Source of the DNA: a virus
IMG/VR virus record: IMGVR_UViG_3300042290_000148
Location: 1 to 54,267 of that record
Length of the DNA: 54,267 bases
Direction: 5' to 3' (one strand)
Position 1 is the first letter of the stretch. Each line of letters begins with the position of its first letter. This document shows, piece after piece, positions 1,204 through 5,432 of this stretch. The notes under the pieces are model-generated. The model was not told where the DNA came from and did no database searches. It was given only the letters and a program-made list of their open reading frames with translations. The position numbers and the translations under genes were made by a program.

Positions 1204-1285
1204 TGGAGCCCAAGATAGGATTCGAACCTACATCTTACTTCCAGTTACCTTTGGCTCCGTTCGTAGCGGAGAGGGATACTTGGGC
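1204..1285 (-). tRNA. Atypical tRNA, probable tRNA-Arg (ACG), no D-arm
   Basis: A perfect acceptor stem GCCCAAG/CTTGGGC with discriminator T and encoded CCA, and a T-arm with loop TTCGAAT, are clear. The only 5 bp stem with a 7 nt loop and a T at position 33 is CTCCG-CTACGAA-CGGAG, giving anticodon ACG (Arg, CGN). Only 7 nt separate the acceptor from this arm, so there is no room for a D-arm. About 23 nt lie between the anticodon stem and the T-arm, with a 3 bp CCA/TGG hairpin in it. It may be a degenerate tRNA, a tRNA mimic, or an unusual functional form. Confidence 0.6.
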
Positions 1286-2118: not shown

Positions 2119-2203
2119 TGGTGGGCCAGTGAGGTATCGATCCTCCCCCGAAGACGGACGAGATTTACAGTCTCGCTGCTAGAGCCACTAGCTTTACCGA
2201 CCC
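2119..2203 (-). tRNA. tRNA-Tyr (GUA anticodon), unusual T-loop
   Basis: Acceptor GGGTCGG/CTGGCCC with discriminator A and encoded CCA, anticodon stem CGAGA/TCTCG with loop CTGTAAA (anticodon GTA), and a long variable arm as expected for bacterial tRNA-Tyr. The T-loop reads ATCGATA instead of TTCRANY, so position 54 is A and the normal T54-A58 pair cannot form in the usual way. Confidence 0.9.
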
Positions 2204-2208
2204 AAAAA

Positions 2209-2291: not shown

Positions 2292-2374
2292 TGGTACGCC
2301 TAGAGGGACTCGAACCCCCACGCTTTCGCACTGGTACCTAAAACCAGCGTGTCTACCAATTCCACCATAGGCGC
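2292..2374 (-). tRNA. tRNA-Leu (UAG anticodon)
   Basis: Acceptor GCGCCTA/TAGGCGT with ACCA end, anticodon stem CTGGT/ACCAG with loop TTTAGGT (anticodon TAG, reads CUA), class II variable arm (GCGAAAGC core), T-loop TTCGAGT. Confidence 0.95.
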
Positions 2375-2383
2375 AAAAAGAGC

Positions 2384-2496
2384 GACCACCTGCAGTGTGC
2401 CTTGATCGAATTACGTCCGGGCGCTTCGATCTTCCCAGATAAAGAATACTGTTGCAACAGTATCTCTACCCCTTCGCGGGTTCAGCAGAGGTGGTC
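2384..2496 (-). ncRNA. Structured cloverleaf-like RNA in the tRNA cluster
   Basis: 113 nt between tRNA-Leu and tRNA-Ala with no open frame. The ends form a perfect 8 bp helix GACCACCT/AGGTGGTC. Inside, on the minus strand in order, are a short ACCC/GGGT hairpin with a GCGAAG loop (2468-2481), an 18 nt perfect palindrome (2446-2463), and a GATCGAA/TTCGATC hairpin (2404-2431). The whole is a four-way junction like a tRNA, but with no T-loop, no anticodon arm and no CCA. A T-run follows the 3' side. T4 also carries two stable RNAs of unknown role (species 1 and 2) in its tRNA cluster; this may be a functional analogue. Confidence 0.7.
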
Positions 2497-2501
2497 TAAC
2501 T

Positions 2502-2577
2502 TGGTGGAGAATAACGGGTTCGAACCGTTGACATCCAGCTTGCAAAGCTGGCGCTCTACCAACTGAGCTAATTCCCC
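2502..2577 (-). tRNA. tRNA-Ala (UGC anticodon)
   Basis: Acceptor GGGGAAT/ATTCTCC with ACCA end, anticodon stem CCAGC/GCTGG with loop TTTGCAA (anticodon TGC), T-loop TTCGAAC, canonical D-arm. Confidence 0.96.
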
Positions 2578-2585
2578 AAAACTTA

Positions 2586-2819
2586 TTATTTTTTATAAGA
2601 GTTAATATATTTTTGGTATTCTTTGTTTGGATGATTTACCAATCGTTTATGGTACAGATCAATTATAGTTTTTGCGGCCGTACCAGGCAACAGATTAGGA
2701 AAAAATCCATGTATGAAACTTGCTAATGCTGCCCAAAGTAATCTCAGTCCAGCCGAATTTGCAAAAACAAAATGGCTTAAATAAGTTTCTTTGCTTTTTT
2801 CTAAGTGTTCTCTAAACAT
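2586..2819 (-). CDS. DUF6356-like small protein
   Basis: 77 residues. The opening HLEKSKETYLSHFVFANSAG, a hydrophobic stretch LRLLWAALASFIHGFFPNLLP and the closing TAAKTIIDLYHKRL match my recollection of DUF6356, a short family sometimes annotated near capsule genes, with no proven function. The middle segment could be membrane-associated. Its start overlaps the end of the AMP-forming ligase gene by 19 nt, so the two are translationally linked and may act together. No catalytic motif is seen. Confidence 0.6.
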   Translation of the reverse strand: MFREHLEKSKETYLSHFVFANSAGLRLLWAALASFIHGFFPNLLPGTAAKTIIDLYHKRLVNHPNKEYQKYINSYKK

Positions 2820-4267
2820 CTAAAAAATTCCCTCATTAATTCTTTATCTAACTTGACTCCAAAATAGTAATCTTTGAAATCCAGAATTGCAAACTTATCT
2901 ATACGAACTAGATTGGTTCCGTGATGAAAGAGAATTGCAGCATCTATTTCCATAACTAATTCGTTTATATCTTTATCATAAGACGAGTTGATTGCTAGAT
3001 AGATTTGGTTTTCGATAATATCTATAACAACAGAAACGTTGTTATCATATTTAGCAGAAATATTTTCAAGGAATGGCAAGTCTACTGTAGTATCATTGAT
3101 ACGAATGACATCGGTGCGCCCGGTATGTTTATACTCATGCCAGTGGGCTTTTACCTTCACGAACTTATCATTCGTAGCTACCGTCTTATCATAAACGGGC
3201 ATGTGAACTAAGAGACCGCCTTCTTCATCGAAAGAAACGCCATAGAAAGCATCTGGTTTAAAAAACTCGGTGTTATCAAAAGTATCGGCATTAACCGCGG
3301 TTAATCTGGACAACAGAAGTGGTCCAGCAGTTTCATTGCAACCAAAAACACTTTCTATGCTTTCAACATAACCTTCTTTCACATATTTCGTATAATCATA
3401 TGGAATGTAAGACAGAAGATCCAAACGCATATTTGGATATTTTACGCCGTGATTTTCCAACGAAGTAAAAAACTTATCGGAAAGATCCCTATATGATAAA
3501 GTGGCATGATTGATATCTTGGTCCTTCAAAGTCAGGACTAAGTTATCAAGAATTTCCGCGCGGTGTGACATAAGATAGTGGTTCTTTACCGCATCGCTAT
3601 GCAACGAAGGTAAGAAAAACACACTCAAACTACTACCGTGATTAAGGTTTCTGCTATGCAGAACGTTACCCGAAAATCTCGACGAATTTCTCTTACACAA
3701 TTCATAGAAAAATCTATGTGTATGTGTAAGTAGCTTCGGAGTATTTGTGGTACCGCTGCTGGTGCATATCATTAAAGTATCGTCTGGGTGCGGCCGAATT
3801 ACAGAGATTTCATCAAATCTTTTTTGATTGTCAACTGTAATAAGACGCAAATCCTCAATGCTAAATGATTTATTGCAATAGTCTATGAACCACGCGGATT
3901 TAGAATATGAATAACCGGCAGCATCATGAATATAGATGTTGATAGGCGACAGTAACTTAACTTTAGGATTTACCTTATCACTAGCCAGATATGCTGGCAG
4001 TTGATCCGCAATAGTAACTACCAAGGACAACTCGAAACTGGCAAAACAAAGGGCAAGATAGTCACTATCTACCACTAGTAGTCCGATAAGAATCCTATCG
4101 CCTTTTTTGGCGCCGCATGTTTCAGTTAAAACATACTTCCAATGGTCAATCTTCTTGACCAATTCATCTTTATTAATCGAATCTGGTGTGGGGTATTCTG
4201 TTGCAAGAGGACTAATGTCTACGCTTTGATAATTGTCCGAGATAAAATCTCTCGTTAAAGTCTGCAT
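2801..4267 (-). CDS. AMP-forming acyl/aryl ligase (ANL superfamily)
   Basis: About 488 residues. The adenylation signature CTSSGTTNTPKLLTHTH corresponds to the P-loop motif (T/S)SGT(T/S)G.PK of acyl-CoA synthetases and peptide-synthetase A domains, with Asn for the second Gly. FGCNETAGPLL matches the YG.TE motif, HTGRTDVIRI matches the (Y)RTGD motif, and FGVKLDKELM near the end could hold the catalytic C-domain Lys. It should activate a carboxylate as an acyl-AMP; no carrier domain is attached and the substrate is unknown. A longer frame reaches 4336, but the ATG at 4267 has a GGAG site 7 nt away and is preferred. Such a gene is rare in a T4-like phage and looks acquired. It is coupled to the DUF6356 gene. 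Confidence 0.75.
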   Translation of the reverse strand: MQTLTRDFISDNYQSVDISPLATEYPTPDSINKDELVKKIDHWKYVLTETCGAKKGDRILIGLLVVDSDYLALCFASFELSLVVTIADQLPAYLASDKVNPKVKLLSPINIYIHDAAGYSYSKSAWFIDYCNKSFSIEDLRLITVDNQKRFDEISVIRPHPDDTLMICTSSGTTNTPKLLTHTHRFFYELCKRNSSRFSGNVLHSRNLNHGSSLSVFFLPSLHSDAVKNHYLMSHRAEILDNLVLTLKDQDINHATLSYRDLSDKFFTSLENHGVKYPNMRLDLLSYIPYDYTKYVKEGYVESIESVFGCNETAGPLLLSRLTAVNADTFDNTEFFKPDAFYGVSFDEEGGLLVHMPVYDKTVATNDKFVKVKAHWHEYKHTGRTDVIRINDTTVDLPFLENISAKYDNNVSVVIDIIENQIYLAINSSYDKDINELVMEIDAAILFHHGTNLVRIDKFAILDFKDYYFGVKLDKELMREFFRCLENT

Positions 4268-4359
4268 AACATCTCCATTGTTTAAAACATAAAGCGAAGT
4301 GGGTGGATTCGGATATACCACCAAGCAACTAGCCAAATACCTATGTATCTATTTCGTCG

Positions 4360-4466
4360 CCACGACTCGTTAGCTGGTTAAGCAGGAGACCAATCCCCGA
4401 GTCTACCTTATCCCCTCTGGCAGGAGAGTATTCAGTCACACTTCTTACAGCCTCCGTCGAGGCTGA
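4360..4466 (-). ncRNA. Structured RNA candidate downstream of tRNA-fMet
   Basis: About 107 nt between tRNA-fMet and the ligase gene with no convincing reading frame. Stable hairpins on the minus strand: AGCCTC-GACG-GAGGCT (4449-4464), CTCT-CCTGCC-AGAG (4415-4428), and a GACTCG/CGAGTC helix (4364-4403) that encloses a TGGT/ACCA hairpin (4375-4392). Spacing and base composition resemble the neighbouring stable RNAs. No tRNA T-loop is present. It may be a second stable RNA or a long structured leader of the ligase mRNA; the ends are approximate. Confidence 0.5.
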
Positions 4467-4925: not shown

Positions 4926-5432
4926 TCAAAAATCTTCTGGTCGATATGGGTCGTAAAATCTTCCCCACATCCAACCAGATGGTAGTATGAAAGTCAGTGG
5001 GTCTACCAAATGCGTTTTACCACTAGGGTCGACACACCACTTTCGTCTTCTATGTCTCGCCTTCATCGCTATGAGATTGCGAGTTTCCCATGATTGGCGT
5101 CTACCATACATAGGATTGTTTTCGTTGCGCCTTGTTCCTCGCATCTTGCGACGAATTTTGGCCTTTGTTTCTTCTTTCAAGCCACCCCAGTTGGGGTTGT
5201 TGCTACCGCTTAACGCTAGAGCAATCTTTCGTTTATGCTCTGTTGTTAGATTTGGTATCTTCTTTCTAGCAACTTTATCCTTGAATGTCAACCCTTTTTT
5301 TAAACTGTCTGCTTTTTCTCTGATATATTCGATATTAGAGTTTTGTAGCAACAGTTCTCTGGGTTTTGGTACCTGTTCCGGGTCCTTGACTAACCAGATT
5401 TCGCTTTTGTGTTTAAAGAGGAAGTATCTCAC
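4926..5432 (-). CDS. NUMOD3 DNA-binding protein, homing-endonuclease-like
   Basis: 168 residues. The segments TTEHKRKIALALSGSNNPNW and ETKAKIRRKMRGTRRNENN followed by NPMYGRRQS are two NUMOD3 repeats, the short helical DNA-binding modules attached to GIY-YIG and HNH homing endonucleases. No nuclease domain is evident in the rest: the N-terminus is MRYFLFKHKSEIWLVKD and the C-terminus PSGWMWGRFYDPYRPEDF. It may be a DNA-binding remnant or a free-standing regulator. The start is GTG at 5432 with an AAAGGTG site, overlapping the end of the SpeD-like gene by 20 nt. Basic and Arg-rich throughout. Confidence 0.7.
   Translation of the reverse strand: MRYFLFKHKSEIWLVKDPEQVPKPRELLLQNSNIEYIREKADSLKKGLTFKDKVARKKIPNLTTEHKRKIALALSGSNNPNWGGLKEETKAKIRRKMRGTRRNENNPMYGRRQSWETRNLIAMKARHRRRKWCVDPSGKTHLVDPLTFILPSGWMWGRFYDPYRPEDF

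What the first reader, a model, noticed from the sequence alone, without database searches (positions are those of the whole stretch)
2384..2496. Four-way-junction RNA without tRNA landmarks inside the tRNA cluster
113 nt closed by a perfect 8 bp helix, with three internal hairpins (one an 18 nt perfect palindrome). It has the shape of a tRNA but no anticodon arm, T-loop or CCA. It lies between tRNA-Leu and tRNA-Ala, so it should be transcribed and processed with them. T4 has two stable RNAs of unknown function in the same kind of locus. This may be an equivalent, perhaps a tRNA decoy or a ribosome- or nuclease-directed RNA.
Basis: partly seen in the sequence, partly recalled or inferred. Interest (0 to 1): 0.75.

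Follow-up and report, generated by a model that had tools for sequence, protein, structure and literature searches.

The report
Self-pairing phage RNA among tRNA genes
Between two tRNA genes of an uncultured virus of bacteria lies a gene for a small folded RNA, found in about a hundred virus fragments and apparently built so that two copies can stick together by their loop ends; it matched no catalogued RNA family that was searched, and its job is unknown.

Summary
The feature is real but lies on the MINUS strand (2496 to 2384), with the tRNAs, and is a three-way junction, not a four-way one. Pattern scans of viral contigs found the same RNA in 65 contigs as form A (38 distinct sequences, 73-131 nt) and in 39 contigs as form B (24 distinct), a circular permutation: the P1 ends are joined and helix P2 is opened. 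Both share the strands GCUGAA-CC, GG-AA and AAGGCACACU. Compensatory changes abound: form A 21 of 37 pairs, covariation 0.348 versus at most 0.050 when slid; form B 0.531 versus at most 0.173.

The apical loop of arm 3 is self-complementary in all 36 distinct arms while its letters change (CCGG, UGCA, CUAG, CGCG, GCGC, UCGA). All 29 long arm-2 loops carry a palindromic hexamer (UUGCAA, UACGUA, UCGCGA, UUCGAA). Best explanation: a homotypic kissing-loop dimer or oligomer, the logic published for OLE and GOLLD. Rfam 15 has no credible match, BLAST queries found no copy in named phages, T4 rnaC/rnaD do not match, and 24 contigs searched whole each hold the core motif once. Fold: near certain. Self-assembly: likely, inferred. 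Biological role: unknown; ribozyme activity not excluded. No expression data.

The parts
2384..2496 (-). RNA gene (form A, 113 nt), RNA 5' end at 2496
   Evidence: Homologues in 64 further contigs. CM R1 gives 125.6 bits, but R1's training set includes this sequence, so that match is by construction
2489..2496 (-). P1 5' strand (GACCACCU)
   Evidence: 4 of 8 P1 pairs with changes on both sides, 99.0% of cells paired over 37 distinct aligned rows
2384..2391 (-). P1 3' strand (AGGUGGUC)
   Evidence: as above
2481..2486 (-). Conserved junction strand J1/2 (GCUGAA)
   Evidence: Not asked for by the pattern; 41 of its 57 new loci have GCTGAACC in place, and the 16 without it have no tRNA within 600 nt. 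Members were sorted by this strand, so its invariance is partly by definition
2434..2480 (-). Arm 2 (P2); reduced to a 9-10 nt hairpin in L127, L151, L169, L176 and opened in form B
   Evidence: 10 of 13 distal pairs with changes on both sides; P2 base types CCC/GGG, CCU/AGG, CCA/UGG, CCU/GGG
2446..2463 (-). 18 nt perfect palindrome: apical stem and loop of arm 2
   Evidence: self-match
2452..2457 (-). Arm 2 loop hexamer UUGCAA (self-complementary)
   Evidence: 29 of 29 long arms carry UUGCAA (25), UCGCGA (2), UACGUA (1) or UUCGAA (1); 4 of 4 short arms carry none
2432..2433 (-). J2/3 (AA)
   Evidence: alignments A1, A2, A4; two form-B sequences (L189, L190) have GGGA instead of GGAA here
2404..2431 (-). 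Arm 3 (P3a, P3b, apical loop)
   Evidence: P3a 4 of 6 pairs with changes on both sides, 99.5% of cells paired; P3b 2 of 4, 90.5%
2416..2421 (-). Arm 3 apical hexamer CCCGGA, core CCGG self-complementary
   Evidence: 36 of 36 distinct arm-3 sequences have a palindromic tetranucleotide at the apex, 32 of 36 a palindromic hexamer; this window's hexamer is one of the four exceptions
2394..2403 (-). Conserved junction strand J3/1 (AAGGCACACU)
   Evidence: Left free, where all 11 true hits have it; imposed in whole or part by the other scans
2497..2498 (-). Conserved 5' flank UA
   Evidence: UA in 62 of 65 form-A contigs
2381..2383 (-). Conserved 3' flank RCU (here GCU)
   Evidence: ACU or GCU in 63 of 65 form-A contigs
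2502..2577 (-). Upstream tRNA-Ala(UGC)
   Evidence: nearest upstream tRNA in 56 of 65 form-A contigs
2292..2374 (-). Downstream tRNA-Leu(UAG)
   Evidence: nearest downstream tRNA in 38 of 65 form-A contigs

Best explanation
A gene for a small trans-acting structured RNA, transcribed in the phage tRNA array and cut out with the tRNAs (inferred). It folds into a three-way junction with a highly conserved core (shown by covariation). The end of arm 3 is a self-complementary loop, so two copies of the RNA join by a symmetric kissing loop (inferred from palindrome switching). Long-arm members carry a second self-complementary loop on arm 2, which would allow chains or closed rings (inferred). The conserved core would be the part that binds a target or does chemistry, presented in a dimer or larger assembly (inferred). 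The order of the strands does not matter, because a circularly permuted form exists (shown). The downstream biological role is not known.
For: Covariation: form A 21 of 37 pairs with changes on both sides, 160 such cells, score 0.348 vs 0.132 shuffled (0/500) and <=0.050 slid (alignment fitted to the model). Unfitted MAFFT alignments: A2 score 0.235 vs 0.121 shuffled, <=0.060 slid; form B 0.531 vs 0.198, <=0.173. All 72 of 72 loci matching a core pattern that ignores P1 have P1 with >=6 of 8 pairs (best of four 3' offsets). Held-out short-arm members score 61.5-75.9 bits. Palindromes: 36/36 distinct arm-3 apices have a self-complementary tetramer, of 6 types, and 32/36 a palindromic hexamer; interior-shuffle null for hexamers mean 4.6, maximum 13 in 2000 (for tetramers mean 14.7, maximum 25). 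Controls for hexamers: anticodon arms from the same loci 19 of 435, form-B P1 caps 1 of 21. The innermost four bases of a 4 nt loop cannot pair within the hairpin. The core motif occurs once in each of 24 contigs searched whole, so the partner would be another copy of the same RNA. Published precedent for the logic: OLE L9.3 and GOLLD L21a (PMC12286853, section 8 read).
Against: No expression, no biochemistry. Most arm-3 apices belong to two tetramers (CCGG 18, UGCA 11), so the number of independent switches is perhaps 5-8 (my estimate; no tree was made), and rows are related. By the tetramer measure the controls are not low: 103 of 435 anticodon arms and 11 of 21 P1 caps. The window's own arm-3 hexamer is CCCGGA, not fully palindromic. 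Some loops fold in the monomer as 4 nt loops, which may be tight for kissing. Vienna predicts the P2 base poorly in form A (mean pair probability 0.36) and one distinct sequence (L057) does not form P3. The form-A P2 swap test alone is not significant (349 of 2000). The long, nearly invariant junction is more than a dimer alone would need. No target known.
Confidence: 0.62

Rival explanations
1. A new self-cleaving (or ligating) ribozyme: a junction core with three helices, of which different ones are open in different types, used to trim tRNA precursors.
For: Nearly invariant multi-strand junction, variable helices, and circular permutation, a pattern known for hammerheads (permutation discussed in PMC10085705, abstract and one section read; the type I/II/III comparison is recalled). 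Theta ribozymes lie next to phage tRNAs (PMC10879173, abstract read). Conserved UA and RCU flanks just outside P1.
Against: No match to any Rfam ribozyme at E<=10 for four members. The core motif occurs once per contig although arrays hold many tRNAs. In the window the neighbouring tRNAs encode CCA, so no special 3' processing is needed. Ribozyme status would not explain palindrome switching in arm 3.
Confidence: 0.13
2. A monomeric scaffold that binds a protein (host nuclease, ribosomal or modification factor); the palindromic loops are recognised by a symmetric protein dimer or are incidental.
For: Conserved unpaired strands GCUGAA, AA and AAGGCACACU suggest a binding site; T4 stable RNAs of unknown function lie in a similar place ('unknown function' recalled).
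Against: A protein reading a sequence would conserve it; here self-complementarity is kept while the letters change.
Confidence: 0.15
3. A decoy or kissing partner for tRNA-Ala(UGC), whose anticodon loop UUUGCAA matches and can pair with the arm-2 loop UUGCAA.
For: tRNA-Ala(UGC) is the nearest upstream tRNA in 56 of 65 form-A contigs; UUGCAA is self-complementary and occurs in 25 of 33 distinct arm-2 sequences.
Against: Loop changes to UACGUA, UCGCGA, UUCGAA with tRNA-Ala(UGC) still upstream; four short-arm members lack the loop; form B lies by tRNA-Leu or tRNA-Asn, or by no detected tRNA, instead.
Confidence: 0.05
4. A DNA-level element (hairpin or cruciform, recombination site) rather than an RNA.
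For: Palindromic stretches, movable location among tRNA genes.
Against: No antisense tRNA among the neighbours detected. G.U pairs that would be A.C on the other strand are kept: 37/37 U.G at columns 13-181, 23 G.U plus 14 A-U at columns 158-169. Core motif once per contig.
Confidence: 0.03

Closest known systems
GOLLD RNA
   Same: Phage-encoded, often beside tRNA islands, unknown function; symmetric kissing loops with palindrome switching (PMC12286853, passages and section 8 read)
   Different: Many members over 800 nt versus 73-131 nt; no Rfam match here; the core motif was not compared base by base with the GOLLD model
ROOL RNA
   Same: Phage and prophage RNA near tRNA islands that assembles through kissing loops
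   Different: Several hundred nt (recalled), octamer cage; no Rfam match here
T4 rnaC and rnaD (species 1 and 2 stable RNAs)
   Same: Stable RNAs of 139 and 119 nt in a T4 tRNA cluster
   Different: No R1 match at E<=10 and no AAGGCACACT within one mismatch; rnaC ends in a T-arm-like hairpin (read by eye), which this RNA lacks
phi29 packaging RNA (recalled, not fetched)
   Same: About 120 nt, paired ends, three-way junction, two loops making intermolecular contacts
   Different: There the two loops pair with each other; here each loop pairs with itself. Different phage type. No sequence test made
Theta (HDV-like) and hammerhead ribozymes
   Same: Small RNAs next to phage tRNAs (theta); circular permutation around a conserved core (hammerhead)
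   Different: No Rfam ribozyme match at E<=10; hammerhead core CUGAUGA/GAAA (recalled) not seen; cleavage untested

Membership tests
tRNA / tmRNA | Cloverleaf with anticodon and T arm, or tmRNA fold | tested here: not met
   ARAGORN none; Rfam tRNA none within 2375-2501; permuted tmRNA only 9.3 bits vs gathering 47
GOLLD / ROOL / OLE | Match to the family covariance model | tested here: not met
   No match at gathering in the window or eight form-B loci or at E<=10 for four family members
GOLLD / ROOL / OLE | Homo-oligomer by symmetric kissing loops | tested here: inconclusive
   Palindrome switching at 36/36 arm-3 apices fits; no assembly experiment
T4 rnaC / rnaD | Sequence and structure homology to T4 RNAs | tested here: not met
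   R1 (form A) no match in L058 at E<=1 or E<=10; core strand AAGGCACACT absent at <=1 mismatch. No form-B model was built
Known self-cleaving ribozymes (hammerhead, HDV-like, twister, pistol, hatchet) | Match to the Rfam model | tested here: not met
   no such match at E<=10
Self-cleaving ribozyme (any) | Self-scission | not testable with these tools
   needs in vitro transcription
SRP RNA / 5S rRNA (eye resemblances) | Match to the Rfam model | tested here: not met
   no such match at E<=10
Form A and form B as one RNA | Same core strands and helices in rotated order, not both in one genome | tested here: met
   AAGGCACACT exactly once per contig in 24 of 24, though contigs may be partial and a diverged copy would be missed

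The most novel reading that the evidence does not exclude
A previously undescribed class of phage RNA that builds an RNA-only assembly from a very small monomer (73-131 nt in form A) by one or two independent self-complementary kissing loops, and that exists in nature in two circularly permuted forms, probably interconverted by tandem duplication and loss of the outer halves.
Probability: 0.42. Interest if true: 0.9.

Novelty: new variant of a known kind. Interest (0 to 1): 0.8.

Why it matters
Stable RNAs of unknown function in phage tRNA arrays have been known since T4 (recalled), and GOLLD and ROOL only recently turned out to be RNA-only cages (PMC12286853). This RNA is far smaller, has a defined core, strong covariation, a permuted sister form and a directly testable assembly rule (swap the palindromes). 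It would be a minimal natural system for asking what self-assembling phage RNAs do, and a possible part for RNA nanotechnology. If it proves to cleave itself, it would be a new ribozyme class.

Tried and rejected
Plus-strand reading: rejected because the tRNAs and the G.U pairs put the RNA on the minus strand. RNAalifold on the MAFFT alignment A1 misplaced arm 3, in my judgement because the stem lengths differ; replaced by a hand structure tested on A2. An SRP-like motif (GUCCGGAAG..AAGCA) and a 5S-like motif seen by eye in L028: no Rfam support, and not kept in other members. Complementarity of the core strands to E. coli rRNA: only an 8-mer (UGUGCCUU, 16S position 1023) and a 7-mer of the same sense in 23S; little more than chance, rejected.

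Named phages: BLAST queries from the window, L028, L036, L129 and a form-B composite found no copy. Matches were short fragments (E 7e-3 or worse); for L129 the query held the 3' end of a tRNA, and the 20 of 514 rows listed all lie within query 4-45, that is the tRNA end and a few bases. Three cyanophage tRNA regions (S-CAM7, S-SKS1, S-RIM2) gave no form-A model match at E<=10; they hold one-mismatch copies of single core strands, but no place with both strands together was seen in the positions printed (at most six per strand and motif). Bacterial genome contigs: two strict form-A patterns, 0 hits; form B was not searched there.

Matches counted as neither form: 1 of 12, 1 of 7 (L021, contig ends short of the site), 9 of 36 new, 6 of 19 new (one of them, L061, is a truncated second view of the L015 contig), 35 of 35 new, 12 of 12 new, 16 of 57 new, 1 of 11 new. 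They were left out of all counts. Of the 16, none has a tRNA within 600 nt; four (L142, L159, L167, L173) have a 6 bp P3-like stem but no GCUGAA strand in place, and are left open. The T-arm control returned nothing (my expression failed) and is not used. R1 gives an 18-bit, E 0.046 hit in L166 next to form B; not counted. R1 does not detect form B otherwise (L129, L134, L182, L183), as expected for a permutation.

Literature: no description seen in the listings; this covers open-licence PMC only and, where many papers matched, only the top 10-20 listed.

Full report
Observation. The window record is a 54,267-base virus contig. The reported 113 nt segment has the 8 bp end helix and 18 nt palindrome described, and no tRNA was called in it. 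All 11 ARAGORN tRNAs in the window are on the minus strand, so the RNA is the reverse complement, 2496 to 2384. Its single-sequence folding is only moderately better than shuffles (z -2.87; 1 of 200).

Homologues. A gapped pattern on P1 and the few bases next to it found 12 viral contigs, of which 11 carry the whole RNA. Patterns on parts of the core found more. After removing matches that are neither form (listed by call in Tried and rejected) there are 72 form-A loci, 65 contigs once repeated views of a contig are dropped, with 38 distinct sequences of 73-131 nt, and 39 form-B contigs with 24 distinct sequences. A covariance model from 10 form-A sequences (R1) finds the RNA in 40 of 40 form-A sources given, including those that hold its training sequences. 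Among the rest are the short-arm members (E 9.6e-14 to 1.4e-17) and L020/L137, whose altered core the patterns used before one search had not matched.

Structure. Form A: P1 - NN - GCUGAA - P2 (CC.../...GG) - AA - P3 (GA.../...UC) - AAGGCACACU - P1'. On 37 distinct aligned rows, 96.0% of cells pair, 21 of 37 pairs have changes on both sides, covariation 0.348 against 0.132 shuffled and at most 0.050 slid (this alignment is fitted to the structure). On an unfitted alignment of 10: 12 of 38 pairs, 0.235 against 0.121 shuffled and at most 0.060 slid. Strand-swap tests on distinct strand pairs: P1 97.9% own against 85.8% swapped, P3 87.5 against 58.8 (0 of 2000 permutations each), form-B P2 84.0 against 64.9 (1 of 2000); form-A P2 alone is not significant with 4 types (349 of 2000). 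A short GCU/GGC helix inside P1 is invariant and so untested.

Circular permutation. In form B the same three core strands occur in the order GG-AA-arm 3-AAGGCACACU-P1 hairpin-GCUGAA-CC, and the outer helix is P2 (AUCGG/CCGAU, AGUGG/CCACU, UUUGG/CCAAA and others). Fourteen form-B sequences, chosen from the 24 for diversity, in an unfitted alignment give covariation 0.531 against 0.198 shuffled (0 of 500) and at most 0.173 slid; 9 of 13 pairs change on both sides. In 24 contigs searched whole (up to 179 kb) the exact motif AAGGCACACT occurs once each, so the two forms look like alternatives. The cap of P1 in form B often keeps the flanks of form A (RCU in 13, UAG in 11 of 24 distinct), which suggests origin by tandem duplication and loss of outer halves (inference).

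Palindromic loops. All 36 distinct arm-3 sequences have a self-complementary tetranucleotide at the apex: CCGG 18, UGCA 11, CUAG 4, CGCG 1, GCGC 1, UCGA 1. Thirty-two have a palindromic hexamer (shuffled interiors: mean 4.6, maximum 13 of 36 in 2000 trials; tetramers: mean 14.7, maximum 25). The four exceptions are CCCGGA (this window), GUGCAU twice and UCUAGG; the last three are self-complementary with G.U. Controls: 19 of 435 distinct anticodon arms from the same loci and 1 of 21 form-B P1 caps have a hexamer by the same rule; for tetramers the controls are higher (103 of 435 and 11 of 21). Arm 2: 29 of 29 long arms carry UUGCAA 25, UCGCGA 2, UACGUA 1 or UUCGAA 1; 4 of 4 short arms carry none. 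Several loops have the form purine-N6-purine (GUCUAGAA, GUGCGCAA, GUUGCAAA, GUUCGAAA, AUACGUAG), as in the HIV-1 dimer initiation loop (recalled). Kretsch et al. 2025 use this argument, palindromes switching in loops that cannot pair internally, for intermolecular contacts in OLE and GOLLD (PMC12286853; passages and section 8 read). I therefore infer homotypic kissing.

Context. Form A: nearest upstream tRNA is tRNA-Ala(UGC) in 56 of 65 contigs, tRNA-Asn 6, other 3; it ends 5-6 nt before the RNA in 56 of 65 (not exactly the same 56). Nearest downstream: tRNA-Leu(UAG) 38, tRNA-Phe 18, none detected 7, other 2. Flank UA in 62 and RCU in 63 of 65. Form B: upstream tRNA-Leu(UAG) 19, tRNA-Asn 5, none within 600 nt 15; downstream tRNA-Leu(CAA) 18, none 18, other 3. 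No antisense tRNA among the neighbours detected. The window's DNA polymerase is closest among named phages to cyanophage gp43 at 48-49% identity in the 25 rows listed. Of the 24 records, 10 have a match to it: 7 at 78-100%, G022 (form A) and G018 (form B) at 43%, G008 (form B) at 31%; 14 have none, including a 179 kb form-B record. So the RNA spans quite different phages, though records may be partial. Hosts are unknown.

Known families. No credible Rfam 15 match at E<=10 for the window, L028, L036 or L129 members. T4 rnaC/rnaD region: no form-A model match. No hit in named phages with the queries used, and none in bacterial species genomes with two strict form-A patterns.

How it most likely works. 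Shown: fold, permutation, self-complementary loops, core motif once per contig, tRNA-array location. Inferred: co-transcription and tRNA-like excision, homodimer or oligomer by arm 3 (and arm 2 when long), core strands as binding or active site. Unknown: target and benefit. Limits: the near-invariant core is partly imposed by the search patterns and by how members were sorted; related rows are not independent; there is no transcript evidence.

Novelty. The RNA family has no listed relative in the searches made, but its niche and its inferred assembly rule are those of GOLLD and ROOL, so I file it as a new variant of a known kind rather than as categorically new; a ribozyme result would change that.

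Noticed in passing
window 2120-2204, minus: A tRNA-Tyr-like gene (anticodon GUA read by eye, CCA encoded) between tRNA-Asp and tRNA-Phe, not called by ARAGORN or Rfam gathering here, while ARAGORN calls tRNA-Tyr(gta) near the like tRNAs in L009 and L014.
   Followed up: partly
window 1207-1285, minus: A further weak tRNA match (31.1 bits, over the Rfam cut-off) not in the ARAGORN list.
   Followed up: no
window 4292-4464, minus: manA-family cis-regulatory RNA (65.1 bits) just upstream of a gene with a weak AMP-binding-enzyme match below Pfam's cut-off (open frame 2801-4336 from TTG, or 2801-4267 from ATG), inside the tRNA array.
   Followed up: no
L129, L130, L149, L161, L172 downstream of form B: Another repeated, perhaps structured element (CGCCGCCCGTATG..., then ATCCCGGGCCTAG, with GCCCG/CGGGC able to pair, by eye) after form B; in L130 it lies further on.
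   Followed up: no
L128, L132, L152, L191 downstream of form B: A long hairpin, seen by eye and not tested (GAAGCGACAGATCTA ... TAGGTCTGTCGCTTC in L128), follows form B and varies between loci.
   Followed up: no
L130 and L145 downstream of form B: A second CTGCTGAACC strand in a different stretch (CCGGCTGCTGAACCATGT...), perhaps a decayed or diverged copy lacking AAGGCACACT.
   Followed up: no
L142, L159, L167, L173 (the match): Four small viral contigs hold GGAAGA-hairpin-TCAAGGCACACT with a 6 bp P3-like stem; in three of the four the tip is perfectly palindromic (CTGATTAATCAG). No tRNA within 600 nt and no GCUGAA strand in place: chance or a distant relative.
   Followed up: partly
window 4926-5432, minus: Probable homing endonuclease (NUMOD3 motif; weak match to a homing endonuclease family) next to the tRNA array.
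   Followed up: no
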